IMG/VR virus record: IMGVR_UViG_3300005965_000002
Span: 1 to 64,000 of that record
Direction: 5' to 3' (one strand)
DNA length: 64,000 nt
DNA from: a virus
Part shown: piece by piece, positions 12,407 through 47,977 of the stretch
How the letters are laid out: each line of letters opens with the position of its first letter
Position numbering within the stretch: the first letter of the stretch is position 1
Notes under the pieces: model-generated
Seen by the model: the letters and a program-made list of their open reading frames with translations, nothing else
Databases searched by the model: none
Told to the model about the DNA's origin: nothing
Made by a program: the position numbers and the translations under genes

Positions 12407-13174
12407 CTTACTACTCTTGCTTTCACAAGCCGCTATAACGTTGTAGTCTGGACTATATCATCTCCTTAGTAAAACCTTAGGAGGGACGTGCATAGTCTCT
12501 GAACCTTCCCCATTTTAAAGGGGCTCGGCTGCTGATTACCCAATCTCTGATAGTTTTTTAACTTTCACACCCGCTGTTTTCAGCCATGTTGTAGTCATCT
12601 GAGCTATAAGGGCTTTCCAGCAATTCTCGTCCTGCTCACCTATTGATTTCTCAATAAGGGCTCTTTGATCCCTTATAAAAAAGTGAAGCCTGCCATGCTG
12701 CATCCTACTAATAATTATCATGTTACTTAAAGAGTTGTCTTTTATATCACCGTTAATATGATGAATAACTTCGTTATAAGAAAGTTTTCTCTTCAAAACT
12801 TGTTCAGCTATTACCCGGTGTATATCTTTAGAACTTCCTTTAAGTTTATTGTAATTACCAGTAGCATTGTTACCTATTTTTGAGACTTTTCTATAGCATT
12901 CTAAACAGTACTTTTGGTCTTTGTGGTTTAGCTTAATTTTTTTAGTGCATAAAACACAAAATCCCCAACCGTATCTATTTTTGTAAGCCGCTCCTCCTTT
13001 TTGAAGATAAAAATATTTACGTCTTTCTAGGTAACAAGGATTACAGTATCGTCTTCCTTTTGTTGGCGGGATCTTTTTACATTTAACACAAAGCCTCTCC
13101 ATAATAACTCCTTTTATTGGAAGGACCAATATTAGGAGATTATGGTGGACACAACGTGTCAAGTGTAAAAAACA
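12407..13174 (-). ncRNA. group I intron in tRNA-Leu(UAA)
   Basis: A 768-nt intron ending in omega-G, with core strings CAGAGACTAT and GATATAGTCCAGACTACAAC and the 3' end GAGTAGTAAG shared with the other tRNA-Leu intron. It hosts an HNH endonuclease gene on the same strand. Confidence 0.88.
12536..13102 (-). CDS. HNH homing endonuclease inside the tRNA-Leu(UAA) intron
   Basis: A 188-residue protein. The N-terminal half carries two zinc-binding cysteine clusters (CVKCKK...YCNPC and CVLCTKK...YCLEC). The C-terminal half has the HNH core VIHHINGDIKDNSLSNM, then HGRLHFF. The ATG at 13102 has GGAG upstream; longer reading enters the tRNA exon. It would cut an intronless tRNA-Leu allele to spread the intron. 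Confidence 0.88.
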   Translation of the reverse strand: MERLCVKCKKIPPTKGRRYCNPCYLERRKYFYLQKGGAAYKNRYGWGFCVLCTKKIKLNHKDQKYCLECYRKVSKIGNNATGNYNKLKGSSKDIHRVIAEQVLKRKLSYNEVIHHINGDIKDNSLSNMIIISRMQHGRLHFFIRDQRALIEKSIGEQDENCWKALIAQMTTTWLKTAGVKVKKLSEIG

Positions 13175-13230
13175 AAGTCCACAGTGTCTACCATTCCACC
13201 ACCCGAGCATGTCAAAGATCATCTCATATG

Positions 13231-16276: not shown

Positions 16277-17830
16277 TTACATTTTGTCCCTCCTTTTTTT
16301 CCATCTTTTCATAAGTTCTTTCTCCATATATTCTTTGGAAGGTTTCTTACCTTCTTTTTCAACGTATTCGTCCTCGATATCATTAACTATTCCAATAGCT
16401 ACTCCAACCTCAGGTCCAGCTTTTATATCGAGCAGTTCTTTTATCTCATTGCCGTTTAGGGGCGGCTTCTTCGATACAGGTACTTTTCTAGCTTGTTCTA
16501 TTTTTTCCCTTAGCATAGGAATTGAGTTACTAGGAGGTATTTTACCTAATTGATCTGCTTCAGCTAAATCGAGTAGAGAATCTACCAATTCGTCCCCAAT
16601 GCTTCTAATGAAACGACGTAATGCCTTTTCTGTAAGCTTTCCTTCTTCTAGATCTTTCGCCAAGGCATGGGGACGCATATGGTTTCTAACCATCTTTTTA
16701 ACCTTGTCGATATCTTTGACCTTAAAGTTCAGCCTCCTCATTATGCCCTCGGCTATTTCAGAGGCGGCAGCTTCATGGCCGTGGTGCTTTATTTCACCCT
16801 CCATCATAGATCTTGTTGCGGGCTTTCCAATGTCGTGCAGCAGAGCTGCCATCTGATTATTAAGACCAGGCTTTGCATTATCAAGCACCATAAGAGTGTG
16901 CGTCAATACATCACCTTCCTGGTGATGCCTCTCTGATTGCGTTTCCTCTTGTAGTGCTTTTACCTCGGGCAGTATGTGCTCAAGAAGACCGGTATCTCTC
17001 ATAAATTTAATCATAGAGGATAGTTTACCGTAATCAGCTATTTTTTCCATTTCCTCTTGGATACGCTCACTCGAAATGATATTAATTCGGTCTGCATTTC
17101 TTTTTACGGAGTCTATCATGTACTGTGGGATCTTCCAGTTGTATTTAGCTTTGAATCTCACAAGTCTGAGCATTCTCAATGGATCGCTCGTAAACATTTC
17201 ATCCAGGTTTACTTTCGGATGACCAGTAAGGTTTCCTTCTTCTATATCCTTCCGGCTACGCCCGGTAAGATCTTTTATCTCACCGGTAGATAAATCTTTT
17301 AAGAGCATGTTGACCGTAAAGTCACGCCTCATTATATCTTCCTCTACGGTGCCCGGCTCGGTTACTCTTTGCCTGGATTTAGGATCGGGAAAGGATTCCT
17401 TCTGGGAGTCAGCAAATTCTATTACTGCGCCCTGAGTCTGGTAGAGGTCACCTTTATAGTTAATGTTTTCCTTAAAGGTAATCTGCCATATCGGGTAAGA
17501 TTTTCCCATTTGATAAGGAGTCGATACAGATCCTGGATTCTCTTTGTTTAACGTAGTATTGATATATTTGGTCAGCTCTTCTGCGCCACCCCCCTTAGGG
17601 CTATCTACCATTATATCCAGGTCTTTGGCTTTTATTGAAGGATCTTTTTTTATTTTACTCAGATACTCATCGCGGACGTAACCGCCGACAGCATAAGCCT
17701 TACCTTTCCAAGGAGTGGTTGGTAGCCAATCTTTAAAAAGTCTTTCTACTTCTTTTTCTGCATCCGCAGCTACCTTTTTTAAAAGGTGGTTAGCTGCTTC
17801 TCTCAGTTTCGCTGCTGTCTTGAGTTCCAT
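16277..17830 (-). CDS. cca: CCA tRNA nucleotidyltransferase / poly(A) polymerase family
   Basis: A 517-residue class II nucleotidyltransferase. The head domain has YAVGGYVRDEYL and the DLDIMVD metal-binding aspartates; the neck has RRDFTVNMLL and DPLRMLRLVRF, typical of CCA enzymes. The C-terminal half has an HD domain (HDIGKPATRSM, then HHGHEAAA). It would add or repair CCA 3' ends. About half the tRNAs in this window lack an encoded CCA, so the enzyme has clear local substrates. It overlaps the small gene upstream. Confidence 0.9.
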   Translation of the reverse strand: MELKTAAKLREAANHLLKKVAADAEKEVERLFKDWLPTTPWKGKAYAVGGYVRDEYLSKIKKDPSIKAKDLDIMVDSPKGGGAEELTKYINTTLNKENPGSVSTPYQMGKSYPIWQITFKENINYKGDLYQTQGAVIEFADSQKESFPDPKSRQRVTEPGTVEEDIMRRDFTVNMLLKDLSTGEIKDLTGRSRKDIEEGNLTGHPKVNLDEMFTSDPLRMLRLVRFKAKYNWKIPQYMIDSVKRNADRINIISSERIQEEMEKIADYGKLSSMIKFMRDTGLLEHILPEVKALQEETQSERHHQEGDVLTHTLMVLDNAKPGLNNQMAALLHDIGKPATRSMMEGEIKHHGHEAAASEIAEGIMRRLNFKVKDIDKVKKMVRNHMRPHALAKDLEEGKLTEKALRRFIRSIGDELVDSLLDLAEADQLGKIPPSNSIPMLREKIEQARKVPVSKKPPLNGNEIKELLDIKAGPEVGVAIGIVNDIEDEYVEKEGKKPSKEYMEKELMKRWKKRRDKM

Positions 17831-30808: not shown

Positions 30809-31051
30809 TTAATACTCTACTTTATCCGTCTCAAAGGATATACCAGTTTTTTTGACGATAACAGTTACCTGTATATGCTTTAAAGGGATTGGTAAAGGCG
30901 GTAAATAAATGTCTTTTCTATACGGATCATATCTTTTAATCGAAGGAACGAATGGTAACAGTTTTAAGCGCCCCCGAAAGGATTCGAACCTTTGACTGAC
31001 TGGTTTTAGGGACCACTCCTCTACCACTGAGGTACGGGGGCTGATAGTCAT
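30809..31051 (-). CDS. unknown protein of uncertain start; frame runs through the CUA tRNA
   Basis: The C-terminal half (KRYDPYRKDIYLPPLPIPLK to KVEY) looks like real protein, but no ATG, GTG or TTG lies between it and the tRNA. The only ATG in frame is at 31051, upstream of the tRNA, with AAAGG in front. Translation would thus read the tRNA as codons from a longer transcript, or use a rare start. Confidence 0.4.
   Translation of the reverse strand: MTISPRTSVVEEWSLKPVSQRFESFRGRLKLLPFVPSIKRYDPYRKDIYLPPLPIPLKHIQVTVIVKKTGISFETDKVEY
30969..31041 (-). tRNA. tRNA with CUA anticodon (candidate amber suppressor)
   Basis: Perfect acceptor GCCCCCG/CGGGGGC with G discriminator, D stem CCTC/GAGG, T arm AAAGG-TTCGAAT-CCTTT. 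The anticodon arm TGGT-CCCTAAA-ACCA has 34-36 = CUA, which reads UAG. Position 33 is C instead of U, and there is no CCA. An in-frame UAG occurs in the methyltransferase gene at 38770. Confidence 0.75.
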
Positions 31052-35844: not shown

Positions 35845-36852
35845 TTAACCCTTAGTGCTTTCTGAACAGAAACTAACTAATACTCTTTTGTTTTTTACTA
35901 TGATTCTGAAATACGGGCATTTTCCATTTATCGACAAATCTTTTCCATCATTACCTTTTCTAAATTTAACAATCTCAAATTGGTCAGGATTGAATTTGTG
36001 TAGGAACGTTATGGGGACACCCATATATCCATTATAATCGATTGGTATATCCTGTGTTTTATTGACATTTATCCCATCATAATTATCATACTTTGGATAT
36101 TCAGCTTCATTACCAAGATATTTCCTTTTTAGTTCAATGTCTTCATGACGTTTAAAAGTGTCCAAATTAGTTAGCCATAGACAATTATTTGGCGAAACTA
36201 TTCTATTTCCAGCATCATCTATGCGTGCTTCTGTTCCATAGAGATCATAGTGGTCAGGTACAATAAAACCAGAAACGCCTCTACCAAGACCTATTCCTAG
36301 CCAAGCATTGTTTTCCTTAATTAACTTAAAAATTTCCTTATACGTTATGGCATTAACATTCCCAATTATCAAAAATTGTTTATCATAGTTTACCAATTGA
36401 GCGACATACTCTCTGAATAGCGAAAAAGGAGGATTAGTAACAATAATATCTGATTGTTTCAAGAGTTCAATGCTTTCAGCACTTCTAAAGTCTCCATCTC
36501 CTTTGAAATAAACTATATCCGTTGTATCTGGTATCTTTTTCTCGCCCTCAGTTCCTGTATATGCATAGAAAAAACCATTTTCATCTTCTTGCGTATTAAA
36601 TAAATCTCTTGTTTGTTCCTTATAACATGACGCGATTACTTTTTTAAGGCCAAGTTCCTCAAAGTTTGAAGTAAAATAACGGAAGAAGTTGCTGATACGA
36701 GGGTCATCACAATTACAATAAACAACTTTATTCTTAAAATGACTCTTATAATGTTGTAATTCACTTTCTATATCCGCAAGCTGGGTGTAAAATTCATCAC
36801 TTTTCGATTTTTTTGCCTTTTGAAGTAATTTATTTGTTGCATTTCGTGCCAT
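35845..36852 (-). CDS. ecoRIM: EcoRI-type adenine-specific DNA methyltransferase
   Basis: A 335-residue protein strongly resembling M.EcoRI (326 residues) end to end: MARNATNKLLQKAKKSKSDE, VVYCNCDDPRISNFFRYF, IVTNPPFSLFREYVAQL with the NPPF catalytic motif, and NYDGINVNKTQDIPIDYNG. It would methylate the inner A of GAATTC. It appears intact, so it could protect phage DNA; GAATTC sites do occur here (for example at 304). Located 10 bases after the EcoRI fragment. Confidence 0.93.
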   Translation of the reverse strand: MARNATNKLLQKAKKSKSDEFYTQLADIESELQHYKSHFKNKVVYCNCDDPRISNFFRYFTSNFEELGLKKVIASCYKEQTRDLFNTQEDENGFFYAYTGTEGEKKIPDTTDIVYFKGDGDFRSAESIELLKQSDIIVTNPPFSLFREYVAQLVNYDKQFLIIGNVNAITYKEIFKLIKENNAWLGIGLGRGVSGFIVPDHYDLYGTEARIDDAGNRIVSPNNCLWLTNLDTFKRHEDIELKRKYLGNEAEYPKYDNYDGINVNKTQDIPIDYNGYMGVPITFLHKFNPDQFEIVKFRKGNDGKDLSINGKCPYFRIIVKNKRVLVSFCSESTKG

Positions 36853-36861
36853 TAATTCACC

Positions 36862-37488
36862 TTAGTTGTTATTTGTTAATTGATTGAATATGTCGCTTCC
36901 CAATACTTTGAGCGAGGTCTTCGAAATTTCAATCATAACATCAAACATATCCTTAGTATCCCACCTTTCTCCGTTCCCCTGTGTATAAATAGATGTTGCT
37001 TGAAGCATAATTGTTTTATCAATATGCTTAACAAACTTATTCATACATAAATTGGTGTTGATGGGCATACCATAATTTGCTGATGTCAACCTATCTAGTC
37101 TATTTAGCATTCCTGAGTTATATTCAAGAGTTACAACTCTTCCGTCTGGCCTTTGAATTGAAATAGTTTCTGTTAAGAAATTTGAGCCTTCCAAAAACAG
37201 TACGTAAGGGAAATGAGATTCAGCTAGCATAAAGTTAGCTATTTCTGATATGTTTTTATGAGACCTTTCAATCGCATTTCCAGCGGCCATCAAGTCTTGG
37301 TTATTACCAGTGCCAACTAATTGACCATTTCTAATGTTTTCAATGTCTTTTCCCTGATGTTTGGCTTCTGAAACCAAAACTACTCTCCAATTGCCGTTGT
37401 CGTCTTTTACTTCAATAATTCCGCCATCAGGTTTAATACTAGAATTACCTAAATCTTTTCTCATTACTATGACTTGTTTGTAATTCAT
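36862..37488 (-). CDS. ecoRIR: N-terminally deleted EcoRI endonuclease fused to 13 residues of a PTH2-like protein
   Basis: From residue 14 on, the sequence follows EcoRI: SSIKPDGGIIEVKDD, VSEAKHQGKDIENIRNGQLV, DLMAAGNAIERSHKNISEIA, FPYVLFLEGSNFLTE. The catalytic Asp (PDGG) and Glu/Lys (EAK) remain, but roughly the first 85 residues of EcoRI are missing. They are replaced in frame by MNYKQVIVMRKDL, the start of a PTH2-type peptidyl-tRNA hydrolase. Probably inactive, since the N-terminal fold is gone. It overlaps the previous gene at ATGA. Confidence 0.9.
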   Translation of the reverse strand: MNYKQVIVMRKDLGNSSIKPDGGIIEVKDDNGNWRVVLVSEAKHQGKDIENIRNGQLVGTGNNQDLMAAGNAIERSHKNISEIANFMLAESHFPYVLFLEGSNFLTETISIQRPDGRVVTLEYNSGMLNRLDRLTSANYGMPINTNLCMNKFVKHIDKTIMLQATSIYTQGNGERWDTKDMFDVMIEISKTSLKVLGSDIFNQLTNNN

Positions 37489-37743: not shown

Positions 37744-38310
37744 TCAACTCCTAAGTTCTCTTTCGCCTGAGCGGGATAAATAGTTTTTATCTGCTGGTGA
37801 ATCGTAAAACCAGCAGGGCCAGTGCTTTTTAAAGCTTTCAATTACTGCTTGGTTACAAGTAATCACTAAACTCCAAGGACGAAAGAGTACCATATCAAAC
37901 ATTACCCAGCCGGGCTGGAGGGTCACCGCGTGGAAATTGTATTGGCTCTGTTCGCTGTCGTGGGAGACAATGATATCTGTGTTTTTCTGTAGTCGGTCTA
38001 AGAGTTGCCATCTTAACTCGACATCATTGTCTACGAAAATCATATCCCACTTACCGGATAAGCGGGATGCATAATTTAAGACCTGATCGTGATCGGGTAA
38101 GTATAGCGAGTTAGGGTTGATTTTTTGAGAAGAATCAAACCATTGTTCATTCTGGGTTTCTATAGAGGTAAGTACGCAACCTCTCTCTACAAAATATCTC
38201 GTGCTAAAGTCTCCGGTACCGAACTCAAGTACTTCCTTTGGATTCACCGTATTGAACACACGATCCAAAACTGGTATATGACTCATAATCCCATCAAATT
38301 TAAATATCAT
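37744..38310 (-). CDS. methyltransferase-like (family 24-like) protein, 188 aa
   Basis: EVLEFGTGDFSTRYFVERG is motif I; LTSIETQNEQWFDSS the acidic strand end; KWDMIFVDNDVELRWQLL and DIIVSHDSEQSQYN follow the pattern also seen at 1189-1890. Substrate unknown, perhaps a sugar. Located just after tRNA-Pro(GGG). Confidence 0.65.
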   Translation of the reverse strand: MIFKFDGIMSHIPVLDRVFNTVNPKEVLEFGTGDFSTRYFVERGCVLTSIETQNEQWFDSSQKINPNSLYLPDHDQVLNYASRLSGKWDMIFVDNDVELRWQLLDRLQKNTDIIVSHDSEQSQYNFHAVTLQPGWVMFDMVLFRPWSLVITCNQAVIESFKKHWPCWFYDSPADKNYLSRSGERELRS

Positions 38311-38326: not shown

Positions 38327-38404
38327 TGGTCGGGACGCCCGGATTTGAACCGGGGACCCCAAGTCCCCCAGACTTGTGCGCTGACCAGGCTGCGCCACGT
38401 CCCG
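38327..38404 (-). tRNA. tRNA-Pro(GGG)
   Basis: Acceptor CGGGACG/CGTCCCG, ACCA encoded, arm CAAGT-CTGGGGG-ACTTG (GGG), T loop TTCAAAT. Confidence 0.94.
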
Positions 38405-38418
38405 AAAAAAACTAGTAA

Positions 38419-38937
38419 TCAATTTTTAACGTTTCCTTTTTTAAACTCTACGTGATAGTTTGTAAACTGCTGCTCTGATCTGTTTTCCAAATTACTTAAT
38501 TCAGGGTGCTCGGATTTTCTATATTTACATTTTTTTATGTTTATAAATCCTAGAATCTTAGCTATATACTCTAATTCTTCAAAGGCAGGAAAATGAATGT
38601 GTCCGAATCTTTTTACATTGATTTCCTCTAAAATGCAAAATTCTCTATAACCATACCCTATATAAAGGAGCGTATCTATGGGTGGGAATGATGCCCGAAA
38701 AACACCGTTGGGTTTTAATATTCTATAGATCTCTGAAAGAAACTTCATCACGTCTATTTGCGATAAGTGCTACAATACATCTTGGCAGTATACGAAGGAA
38801 GCGGTACTATCTTTAAAGGGGTGTTGCTTTGTTATATCTGCTATAAGCTGCGTGTCCGGGTTGTCTGCGTCAAAGCGTAGGTCAACGTTTAGCCTCCCCT
38901 CTTTGTAATCGTTACCACTGCCGTAATGGATCTTCAT
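38419..38937 (-). CDS. SAM-dependent methyltransferase with an in-frame UAG codon
   Basis: From an ATG at 38937 the frame reads HYGSGNDYKEGRLNVDLRF, a truncated family-11 type start, to FVYCQDVL, then TAG (38772-38770), then HLSQIDVMKFLSEIYRILKP and on to 38419. The usual text at this point is VLEHL, so the UAG replaces a conserved Glu (or Gln) in one of the most constant family motifs, and coding continues normally on both sides. A tRNA with CUA anticodon lies at 30969-31041. Either the codon is read through or the gene is a fresh amber mutant. Confidence 0.75.
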
Positions 38938-46051: not shown

Positions 46052-46843
46052 ATGAAAAATTGTTTATTGTGCGGAGACCTTATTCCAAATTGGATTAAAA
46101 TAGACGGGAAAAGGAAAAATATATCCAGTCGAAAATACTGTTTAAAATGTTCGCCTTATAAAAAACACAACACAAAAAAGTTACACTTAAATAGTAACTC
46201 CGAAAAATTTAAAAAATGTAAAAGCTGCGGTAAAAAACAATCTATTGATAAATTCAGAAAAAGAACAGATAGAGAAAATTTAAGGGTGCCTTATTGTAAA
46301 AAGTGCCAAAATAAAGAGATGCTGATTAGATATAAAAAAAGACACTATAAATTAAAACTCAAAGCTGTTAAATACCTGGGCGGGAAATGTCATGTTTGTG
46401 GTTATAGTAAAAACATACATGTTTTAGACTTTCACCATAAGAACCCAAAAATTAAAAAAGGAGAATTTATAAAATTTAAAAGCGAAGCACGCATTGAGAA
46501 AGAACTAGATAGGTGCGTGTTACTTTGCTCTAACTGCCATAGGGAGCTCCACTATAATGTAAAGAGTTCTAAAATAATTAAAAAAGACACAATAAGAATA
46601 AAAAAGCTGTTGCTTAGTCTAAAGCAAAAAGCTGTTACATACCTGGGAGGGAAATGTTCTGCCTGCGGCTATAAAAAATGTATAGCCGCGCTTGAGTTTC
46701 ACCATATTTCAAAGAGCAAAGAATTTAATATATCAAAGCCTAAATCAATAGTATTTGAAAAAATAAAAACCGAATTAGATAAGTGCTCCCTATTATGCTC
46801 TAACTGTCACAGGGAAACACATCATAATAGTTGCAAAAAATAG
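46052..46843 (+). CDS. tandem HNH endonuclease, 263 aa
   Basis: N-terminal zinc clusters (CLLCGDLIPNW; YCLKCSPYKKH; CKSCGKKQ...YCKKCQ) are followed by two similar HNH units, each YLGGKCxxCGY...FHH...LLCSNCHRE. The duplicate units suggest an internal duplication. It is close kin of the minus-strand protein at 47444. Lies between a truncated tRNA and tRNA-Val, as homing genes often do. AAAGGA before the ATG. Confidence 0.85.
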   Translation: MKNCLLCGDLIPNWIKIDGKRKNISSRKYCLKCSPYKKHNTKKLHLNSNSEKFKKCKSCGKKQSIDKFRKRTDRENLRVPYCKKCQNKEMLIRYKKRHYKLKLKAVKYLGGKCHVCGYSKNIHVLDFHHKNPKIKKGEFIKFKSEARIEKELDRCVLLCSNCHRELHYNVKSSKIIKKDTIRIKKLLLSLKQKAVTYLGGKCSACGYKKCIAALEFHHISKSKEFNISKPKSIVFEKIKTELDKCSLLCSNCHRETHHNSCKK

Positions 46844-47443: not shown

Positions 47444-47977
47444 CTATAAAAATTTTTTTATGTTTATTAGCTTTCCGTGTACTTCCGCGTGGCAACTCCT
47501 GCACAAGCATATGCATTTGTTTAGTTCTTTTTTTACTTTATCTAAATTTAACAGTTTGGATTTTGATATTATATAATCTTTTTTAGAAGGTTCTAAATGA
47601 TGAAATTCCAATGCTCCATAATACTTATTATATCCACAGATTAAACACTTACCGCCTAAATACTCTACCGCTTCTTTTTTTAATTTTATTTGCCTATCTT
47701 TAGTGCTGTTGCTACAACATAATTTACAGTAAGAGCTATACCCTCCGCTCTCCCTTTTATAAAACTCATTTAACTTCTTTTTTTTGTTGCATTTTGGGCA
47801 TAGCTTTTCTGACTTAATATCGATTCCTAATTCATCCGGTACGTGTAGCTTTTTTGTGTTATGCTTTTTATAGGGAGAACACCTTAAACAATATTTTCTA
47901 GAAAATAGATACTTCCATTCACCGTTTATTTTTTGATATCCCTTAAACTCTTTATTACATTTTTTACATATTGGCAT
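47444..47977 (-). CDS. HNH endonuclease, 177 aa
   Basis: Zinc clusters ICKKCNKEFKGY, YCLRCSPYKKH, LCPKCNKKKK...YCKLCC, then one HNH unit YLGGKCLICGYNKYYGALEF with FHH and CLCRSCHAEVHG. Homologous to the tandem protein at 46052 on the other strand. Probably a free-standing homing endonuclease of the tRNA cluster. Confidence 0.85.
   Translation of the reverse strand: MPICKKCNKEFKGYQKINGEWKYLFSRKYCLRCSPYKKHNTKKLHVPDELGIDIKSEKLCPKCNKKKKLNEFYKRESGGYSSYCKLCCSNSTKDRQIKLKKEAVEYLGGKCLICGYNKYYGALEFHHLEPSKKDYIISKSKLLNLDKVKKELNKCICLCRSCHAEVHGKLINIKKFL

What the first reader, a model, noticed from the sequence alone, without database searches (positions are those of the whole stretch)
38419..38937. In-frame UAG inside a conserved methyltransferase motif
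Seen directly: the frame is open and protein-like on both sides of a TAG at 38772-38770, which stands where the family nearly always has Glu in VLEHL. Known: some huge and crAss-like phages read UAG as an amino acid with a suppressor tRNA. Inference: UAG is read here (as Gln or Glu), or the gene is partly suppressed. TAG is still used as a normal stop by several small genes here, so recoding would be partial or timed.
Basis: partly seen in the sequence, partly recalled or inferred. Interest (0 to 1): 0.85.

Follow-up and report, generated by a model that had tools for sequence, protein, structure and literature searches.

The report
Stop codon inside phage methyltransferase gene
A huge bacterial virus that otherwise uses UAG as an ordinary stop signal carries one UAG in the middle of an apparently intact methyltransferase gene and, 8 kb away, a transfer RNA whose anticodon fits UAG, so this gene may be made by leaky read-through, although a recent loss-of-function mutation is nearly as likely.

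Summary
An in-frame TAG (38772-38770, minus strand) interrupts a 172-codon class I SAM methyltransferase gene. Neither half matches a methyltransferase family alone; the read-through product does (Pfam Methyltransf_11, E 4e-10). All 8 near homologues carry Glu there; more distant solved methyltransferases have Gln, Leu or Phe.

It has unusual features (C33, C10-G25), so it may be weak.

Genome-wide recoding is refuted. TAG ends 44 of 272 predicted genes, including terminase and large late genes. The phage has no RF1/RF2-type release factor. In four related phages (about 180 kb of alignable coding DNA) this is the only stop well inside a conserved alignment.

Best explanation: weak, gene-limited amber suppression by the phage's tRNA (about 0.42). 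Close rival: a recent nonsense mutation (0.36), supported by a second decayed gene nearby, an EcoRI-type endonuclease lacking about 82 N-terminal residues. A base error or minor variant is also open (0.16). Published standard-code phages with CUA tRNAs mostly lack an identified target, so this is a testable candidate target, not a demonstrated one.

The parts
38419..38937 (-). Class I SAM-dependent methyltransferase gene, 172 codons if the TAG is read through; ends in TGA
   Evidence: PF08241 40.5 bits against a cut-off of 21.2 on the read-through product only
38770..38772 (-). In-frame TAG at codon 56, where the 8 near homologues have Glu
38770..38937 (-). 55-residue fragment expected if translation stops at the TAG; holds the glycine-rich SAM motif only
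   Evidence: no family match
38419..38751 (-). Frame after the TAG from the first possible start (GTG at 38751, ATG at 38748); no Shine-Dalgarno-like sequence before it
30968..31041 (-). tRNA with anticodon CUA: candidate amber suppressor; called tRNA-Pyl by ARAGORN only because of its anticodon; C33, C10-G25, G73
16277..17830 (-). tRNA nucleotidyltransferase (CCA-adding enzyme), which could finish tRNAs without an encoded CCA, such as the CUA tRNA
   Evidence: phrog_2244, E 1.7e-54
38327..38404 (-). tRNA-Pro(GGG), 14 bases downstream of the methyltransferase gene: the gene lies within the tRNA array

Best explanation
The gene encodes a small class I SAM-dependent methyltransferase of a standard-code huge phage. 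A Glu codon (probably GAG) has become UAG, and the phage's own CUA tRNA reads that UAG at low efficiency, so that some full-length enzyme is made (most plausibly with Gln at position 56) while most ribosomes stop and release a 55-residue fragment. UAG stays a working stop elsewhere because the tRNA is weak (C33 in place of the usual U33) and the host's RF1 competes. Shown: the TAG, the otherwise intact gene, the CUA tRNA gene, and normal use of TAG as a stop. Inferred: that the tRNA is expressed, charged and active, which amino acid it carries, and that full-length enzyme is useful to the phage.
For: CUA tRNA in the same genome, 57.6 bits, all stems paired. Gene intact apart from the TAG, with the C-terminal YRKSE...NLE region shared with the LR756500.1 homologue. 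Only stop well inside a conserved alignment in four phages, and it is the one stop the tRNA could read; mutational opportunity alone would give TAG about one time in three. Gln occurs at this position in a solved relative, 4krh. Next base is C, which follows only 4 of 33 TAG stops in this phage. CCA-adding enzyme present.
Against: No expression or charging data. C33 and C10-G25 may mean the tRNA is poor or dead (own knowledge of tRNA consensus). G1-C72 is unfavourable for Gln identity (PMC9976931). LR756500.1 has a CUA tRNA but a sense codon at this site. Only one genome shows the TAG, so no selection test is possible. Decay of another gene close by.
Confidence: 0.42

Rival explanations
1. Recent nonsense mutation. 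The methyltransferase is an accessory gene that has just been knocked out by a change to TAG, and the CUA tRNA is irrelevant or inactive: a young pseudogene.
For: Single lesion in an accessory gene; the EcoRI-type endonuclease at 36862-37488 is truncated too, whereas three viral relatives are 277-296 aa. Codons around and after the TAG score near zero. TAG is otherwise an ordinary stop.
Against: The phage carries a tRNA that fits exactly this stop; no second lesion in 172 codons; no other conserved gene tested is interrupted.
Confidence: 0.36
2. Base error in the assembly, or a minor population variant carried into the consensus.
For: Metagenome-derived record; a single base separates TAG from GAG, the expected Glu codon.
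Against: No other stop or frameshift well inside the conserved genes of this record, so the sequence looks accurate; the TAG choice would be a coincidence with the CUA tRNA.
Confidence: 0.16
3. Two separate products: translation stops at the TAG and restarts at the GTG or ATG 6-7 codons on.
For: Start codons lie at 38751 and 38748.
Against: No Shine-Dalgarno-like sequence before them; the split cuts a single domain between the SAM motif and the rest, and neither half matches a methyltransferase family.
Confidence: 0.04
4. Genome-wide or late-gene reassignment of UAG, as in Lak and crAss-like phages.
For: CUA tRNA present.
Against: TAG ends 22 of 159 long ORFs and 44 of 272 genes, terminase and late genes included; no excess of TAG junctions; no RF2; no other in-frame TAG in conserved genes.
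Confidence: 0.02

Closest known systems
Standard-code phages with CUA tRNAs: Xanthomonas jumbo phage XacN1 (PMC5852040), Ralstonia jumbo phage RsoM2USA (PMC8504454), Stenotrophomonas phage Summit (PMC9022506)
   Same: CUA tRNA in a phage that uses TAG as a normal stop
   Different: In XacN1 and Summit the authors looked for a gene needing the tRNA and found none; here one conserved gene has homology on both sides of an in-frame TAG. The tRNA here has C33, while XacN1 and LR756500.1 have U33
TAG-recoded phages (code 15): Lak, crAss-like and other jumbo phages (PMC13037316, PMC11210395, PMC9523058)
   Same: In-frame TAG inside a conserved gene plus a CUA tRNA
   Different: There many genes are interrupted and coding density rises under the new code; here one gene, with TAG still a stop in 44 genes
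E. coli amber suppressor made from tRNA-Trp, which is charged with Gln (reviewed in PMC9976931)
   Same: CUA anticodon in a Trp-like anticodon arm, G73
   Different: The rest of this tRNA is closest to the phage's tRNA-Arg(ACG); G1-C72 pair; C33
In-frame stops in prokaryotic genes kept under purifying selection (PMC7918605)
   Same: A stop inside an otherwise intact coding gene, with read-through proposed
   Different: There selection was measured across related genomes; here only one genome shows the stop

Membership tests
TAG-recoded phage (genetic code 15) | Many genes interrupted by in-frame TAG; coding improves clearly when TAG is read | tested here: not met
   No TAG excess in junction scans; one interior TAG in about 51 kb of homology-covered DNA
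TAG-recoded phage (genetic code 15) | TAG avoided as a terminator | tested here: not met
   44 of 272 predicted genes, 22 of 159 long ORFs
TAG-recoded phage (genetic code 15) | Suppressor tRNA with anticodon CUA (common, not universal) | tested here: met
   30968-31041, 57.6 bits
TAG-recoded phage (genetic code 15) | Phage-encoded RF2 (in some members) | tested here: not met
   No PF00472 match in the record, controls positive
Standard-code phage with an amber-suppressor tRNA | CUA tRNA together with normal TAG stops | tested here: met
Standard-code phage with an amber-suppressor tRNA | The tRNA is charged and suppresses UAG | not testable with these tools
   Needs a reporter assay; C33 and C10-G25 leave it doubtful
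Methyltransf_11 (PF08241) class I SAM methyltransferase | Profile match above the curated cut-off | tested here: met
   40.5 bits against 21.2, on the read-through product only
Pyrrolysine tRNA (ARAGORN's label) | Distinctive tRNA-Pyl shape: short D loop, one base between acceptor and D stems, very short variable loop | tested here: not met
   Two bases between the stems, ordinary D loop, variable region of 5-6 bases; the tRNA-Pyl features are own knowledge
Pseudogene | Relaxed selection after the lesion | not testable with these tools
   No close strain found, so no selection test

The most novel reading that the evidence does not exclude
A standard-code huge phage uses a deliberately weak CUA tRNA as a dimmer for one accessory gene: UAG remains a stop genome-wide, but this methyltransferase is made only by programmed amber suppression, which would give a natural target for the phage amber-suppressor tRNAs that have no known target.
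Probability: 0.15. Interest if true: 0.75.

Novelty: new variant of a known kind. Interest (0 to 1): 0.45.

Why it matters
Several standard-code phages carry CUA tRNAs whose purpose is unknown; the authors describing XacN1 and Summit reported that they found no gene that needs them. A gene with homology on both sides of an in-frame UAG, in a phage with its own CUA tRNA, gives that open question a concrete test. It could also show an early stage of stop-codon reassignment, in which suppression makes a nonsense mutation tolerable before the code changes.

Tried and rejected
Code-wide recoding: rejected by stop usage and junction scans. A second read-through candidate, TAG at 95176 (+) followed by 37 open codons: not covered by homology and no Rfam RNA there, left open. 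TAA 28579 junction: an ordinary gene boundary with a good Shine-Dalgarno 13 codons on; TGA 16019 junction: not resolved. Viral contigs sharing the 17-base anticodon arm: chance hits in an unrelated coding region. Near-identical strains to check the codon or the tRNA: none in viral contigs, though records very near this one may be left out of such searches. Structure of the read-through protein: alignment too shallow, pLDDT 39.6, not used. Backup stops after TAG: no difference from other stops. A phage glutamyl/glutaminyl-type synthetase to charge the tRNA: none. A plasmid copy of the gene: none.

Full report
What is there. The window is the first 64 kb of a 258,580-bp virus record, with 37 tRNA genes, all in the first 60 kb. 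The minus-strand frame 38937-38419 encodes a 172-residue protein interrupted at codon 56 by TAG. Read through, it is a class I SAM methyltransferase (Methyltransf_11, 40.5 bits, cut-off 21.2). Separately, the front half has no family match and the back half no methyltransferase match. The gene lies within the tRNA array, 14 bases upstream of a tRNA-Pro.

Is the position conserved? In an alignment with eight homologues (two huge-phage records that appear to be near-copies of each other, three smaller phages, three Streptomyces), all eight have Glu where the TAG stands. In the nearest solved structures the position holds Phe, Gln and Leu. So Glu is the rule close by, while Gln and other residues occur in the wider fold. 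The closest homologue, in LR756500.1, has GAA; a Salmonella phage homologue has GAG.

Is it unusual for this genome? I trained a coding model on the phage's long ORFs and looked for stops with coding sequence in the same frame on both sides. Nearly all are ordinary gene boundaries, and TAG is not in excess over TAA or TGA. The region just after the target TAG scores weakly, so the target itself did not pass these filters. I therefore also used homology: ORFs of LR745208.1, Tunturi_5 and most of LR756500.1 were aligned to this genome, and the reverse. In about 51 kb of aligned DNA here and 129 kb in the relatives, 38772 is the only stop well inside an alignment; the few others lie within about 14 positions of an alignment end.

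The missing piece. The phage encodes a tRNA with anticodon CUA at 31041-30968, 57.6 bits against the tRNA model with every stem paired. It lacks an encoded CCA, as do several other tRNAs of this phage, and the phage has a CCA-adding enzyme. Its body is closest to the phage's tRNA-Arg(ACG), with tRNA-Trp second; its anticodon arm resembles the phage's tRNA-Trp (GTGGTCCCTAAAACCAG against CTGGTCTCCAAAACCAG). Two features suggest weak activity: C at position 33, where U is nearly universal, and C10-G25 in the D stem (own knowledge of tRNA consensus). G73 and U35 would suit GlnRS; G1-C72 would not (PMC9976931). The related LR756500.1 also has a CUA tRNA, with the usual U33, but keeps a sense codon in the methyltransferase.

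TAG as a stop. TAG ends 22 of 159 long ORFs and 44 of 272 predicted genes, at similar rates in the tRNA region and the structural region, terminase included. TAG stops are not protected by a close second stop more than other stops are. No RF1/RF2 family protein is encoded. So UAG must mostly terminate; a strong suppressor would be costly.

Mechanism. I favour low-level amber suppression that matters mainly for this gene: most ribosomes stop at codon 56, a few insert an amino acid (Gln most plausible) and make full-length enzyme. The steps shown are the codon, the intact remainder, the tRNA gene and the normal stop usage. Expression, charging and activity of the tRNA are inferred. Whether the arrangement is selected (a dimmer) or merely tolerated cannot be told from one genome.

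Main rival. A recent nonsense mutation explains the same sequence without any role for the tRNA. Supporting it, the neighbouring EcoRI-type endonuclease (36862-37488) lacks about 82 N-terminal residues that three viral relatives retain (278, 296 and 277 aa), while its methylase partner is still a strong match, so accessory genes do decay here. Against it, mutational opportunity gives TAG only about one time in three, and the gene shows no second lesion. These are modest likelihood ratios, hence nearly equal confidence. A consensus error cannot be excluded without reads.

Comparison with what is known. XacN1 and Summit are standard-code phages with CUA tRNAs in which the authors found no target; RsoM2USA is similar, though its authors suppose several targets. 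Recoded phages have many interrupted genes. This phage resembles the first group and adds one candidate target. It fails the membership tests for the second.

Noticed in passing
window 35845-36852 and 36862-37488 (-): An EcoRI-type restriction-modification pair in a huge phage: the methylase is a strong match (PF13651, E 2e-132), while the endonuclease lacks about 82 N-terminal residues. Its first residues (MNYKQVIVMRKDLG) look like the start of a peptidyl-tRNA hydrolase 2, from memory only. Six other viral contigs carry EcoRI relatives, and the three read are full length.
   Followed up: partly
window 2944-3239 and 12433-12677 (-): Two group I introns by Rfam (79 and 67 bits), the second next to an HNH endonuclease gene at 12536-13222.
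   Followed up: no
window 5727-5817 (-): ARAGORN calls this tRNA-Ala(CGC), but it has a long variable arm and a TTGAAAA anticodon loop; it looks like a tRNA-Ser(UGA).
   Followed up: no
LR745208.1, loci L073 (2130-2206) and L074 (633-707): A relative carries a tRNA with anticodon UUA, which would read the UAA stop, and one with a possible four-base anticodon loop, UUUA.
   Followed up: partly
LR756500.1, locus L082 11703-11771 (-): Another huge phage, with the closest methyltransferase homologue, also has a CUA tRNA, with U33 and a shortened D arm.
   Followed up: partly
G000:C1 95176-95289 (+), outside the window: A gene ending in TAG is followed by 37 open codons with coding-like composition and no ATG; could be a read-through extension or an unannotated element.
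   Followed up: partly
window 46052-46843 (+) and 47444-47977 (-): Two related HNH endonuclease genes on opposite strands, about 600 bases apart, match the same proteins of LR745208.1.
   Followed up: no
window 37744-38310 (-): The gene just downstream of the tRNA-Pro has a methyltransferase-like motif (EVLEFGTGDFSTRYF) but no Pfam match.
   Followed up: no
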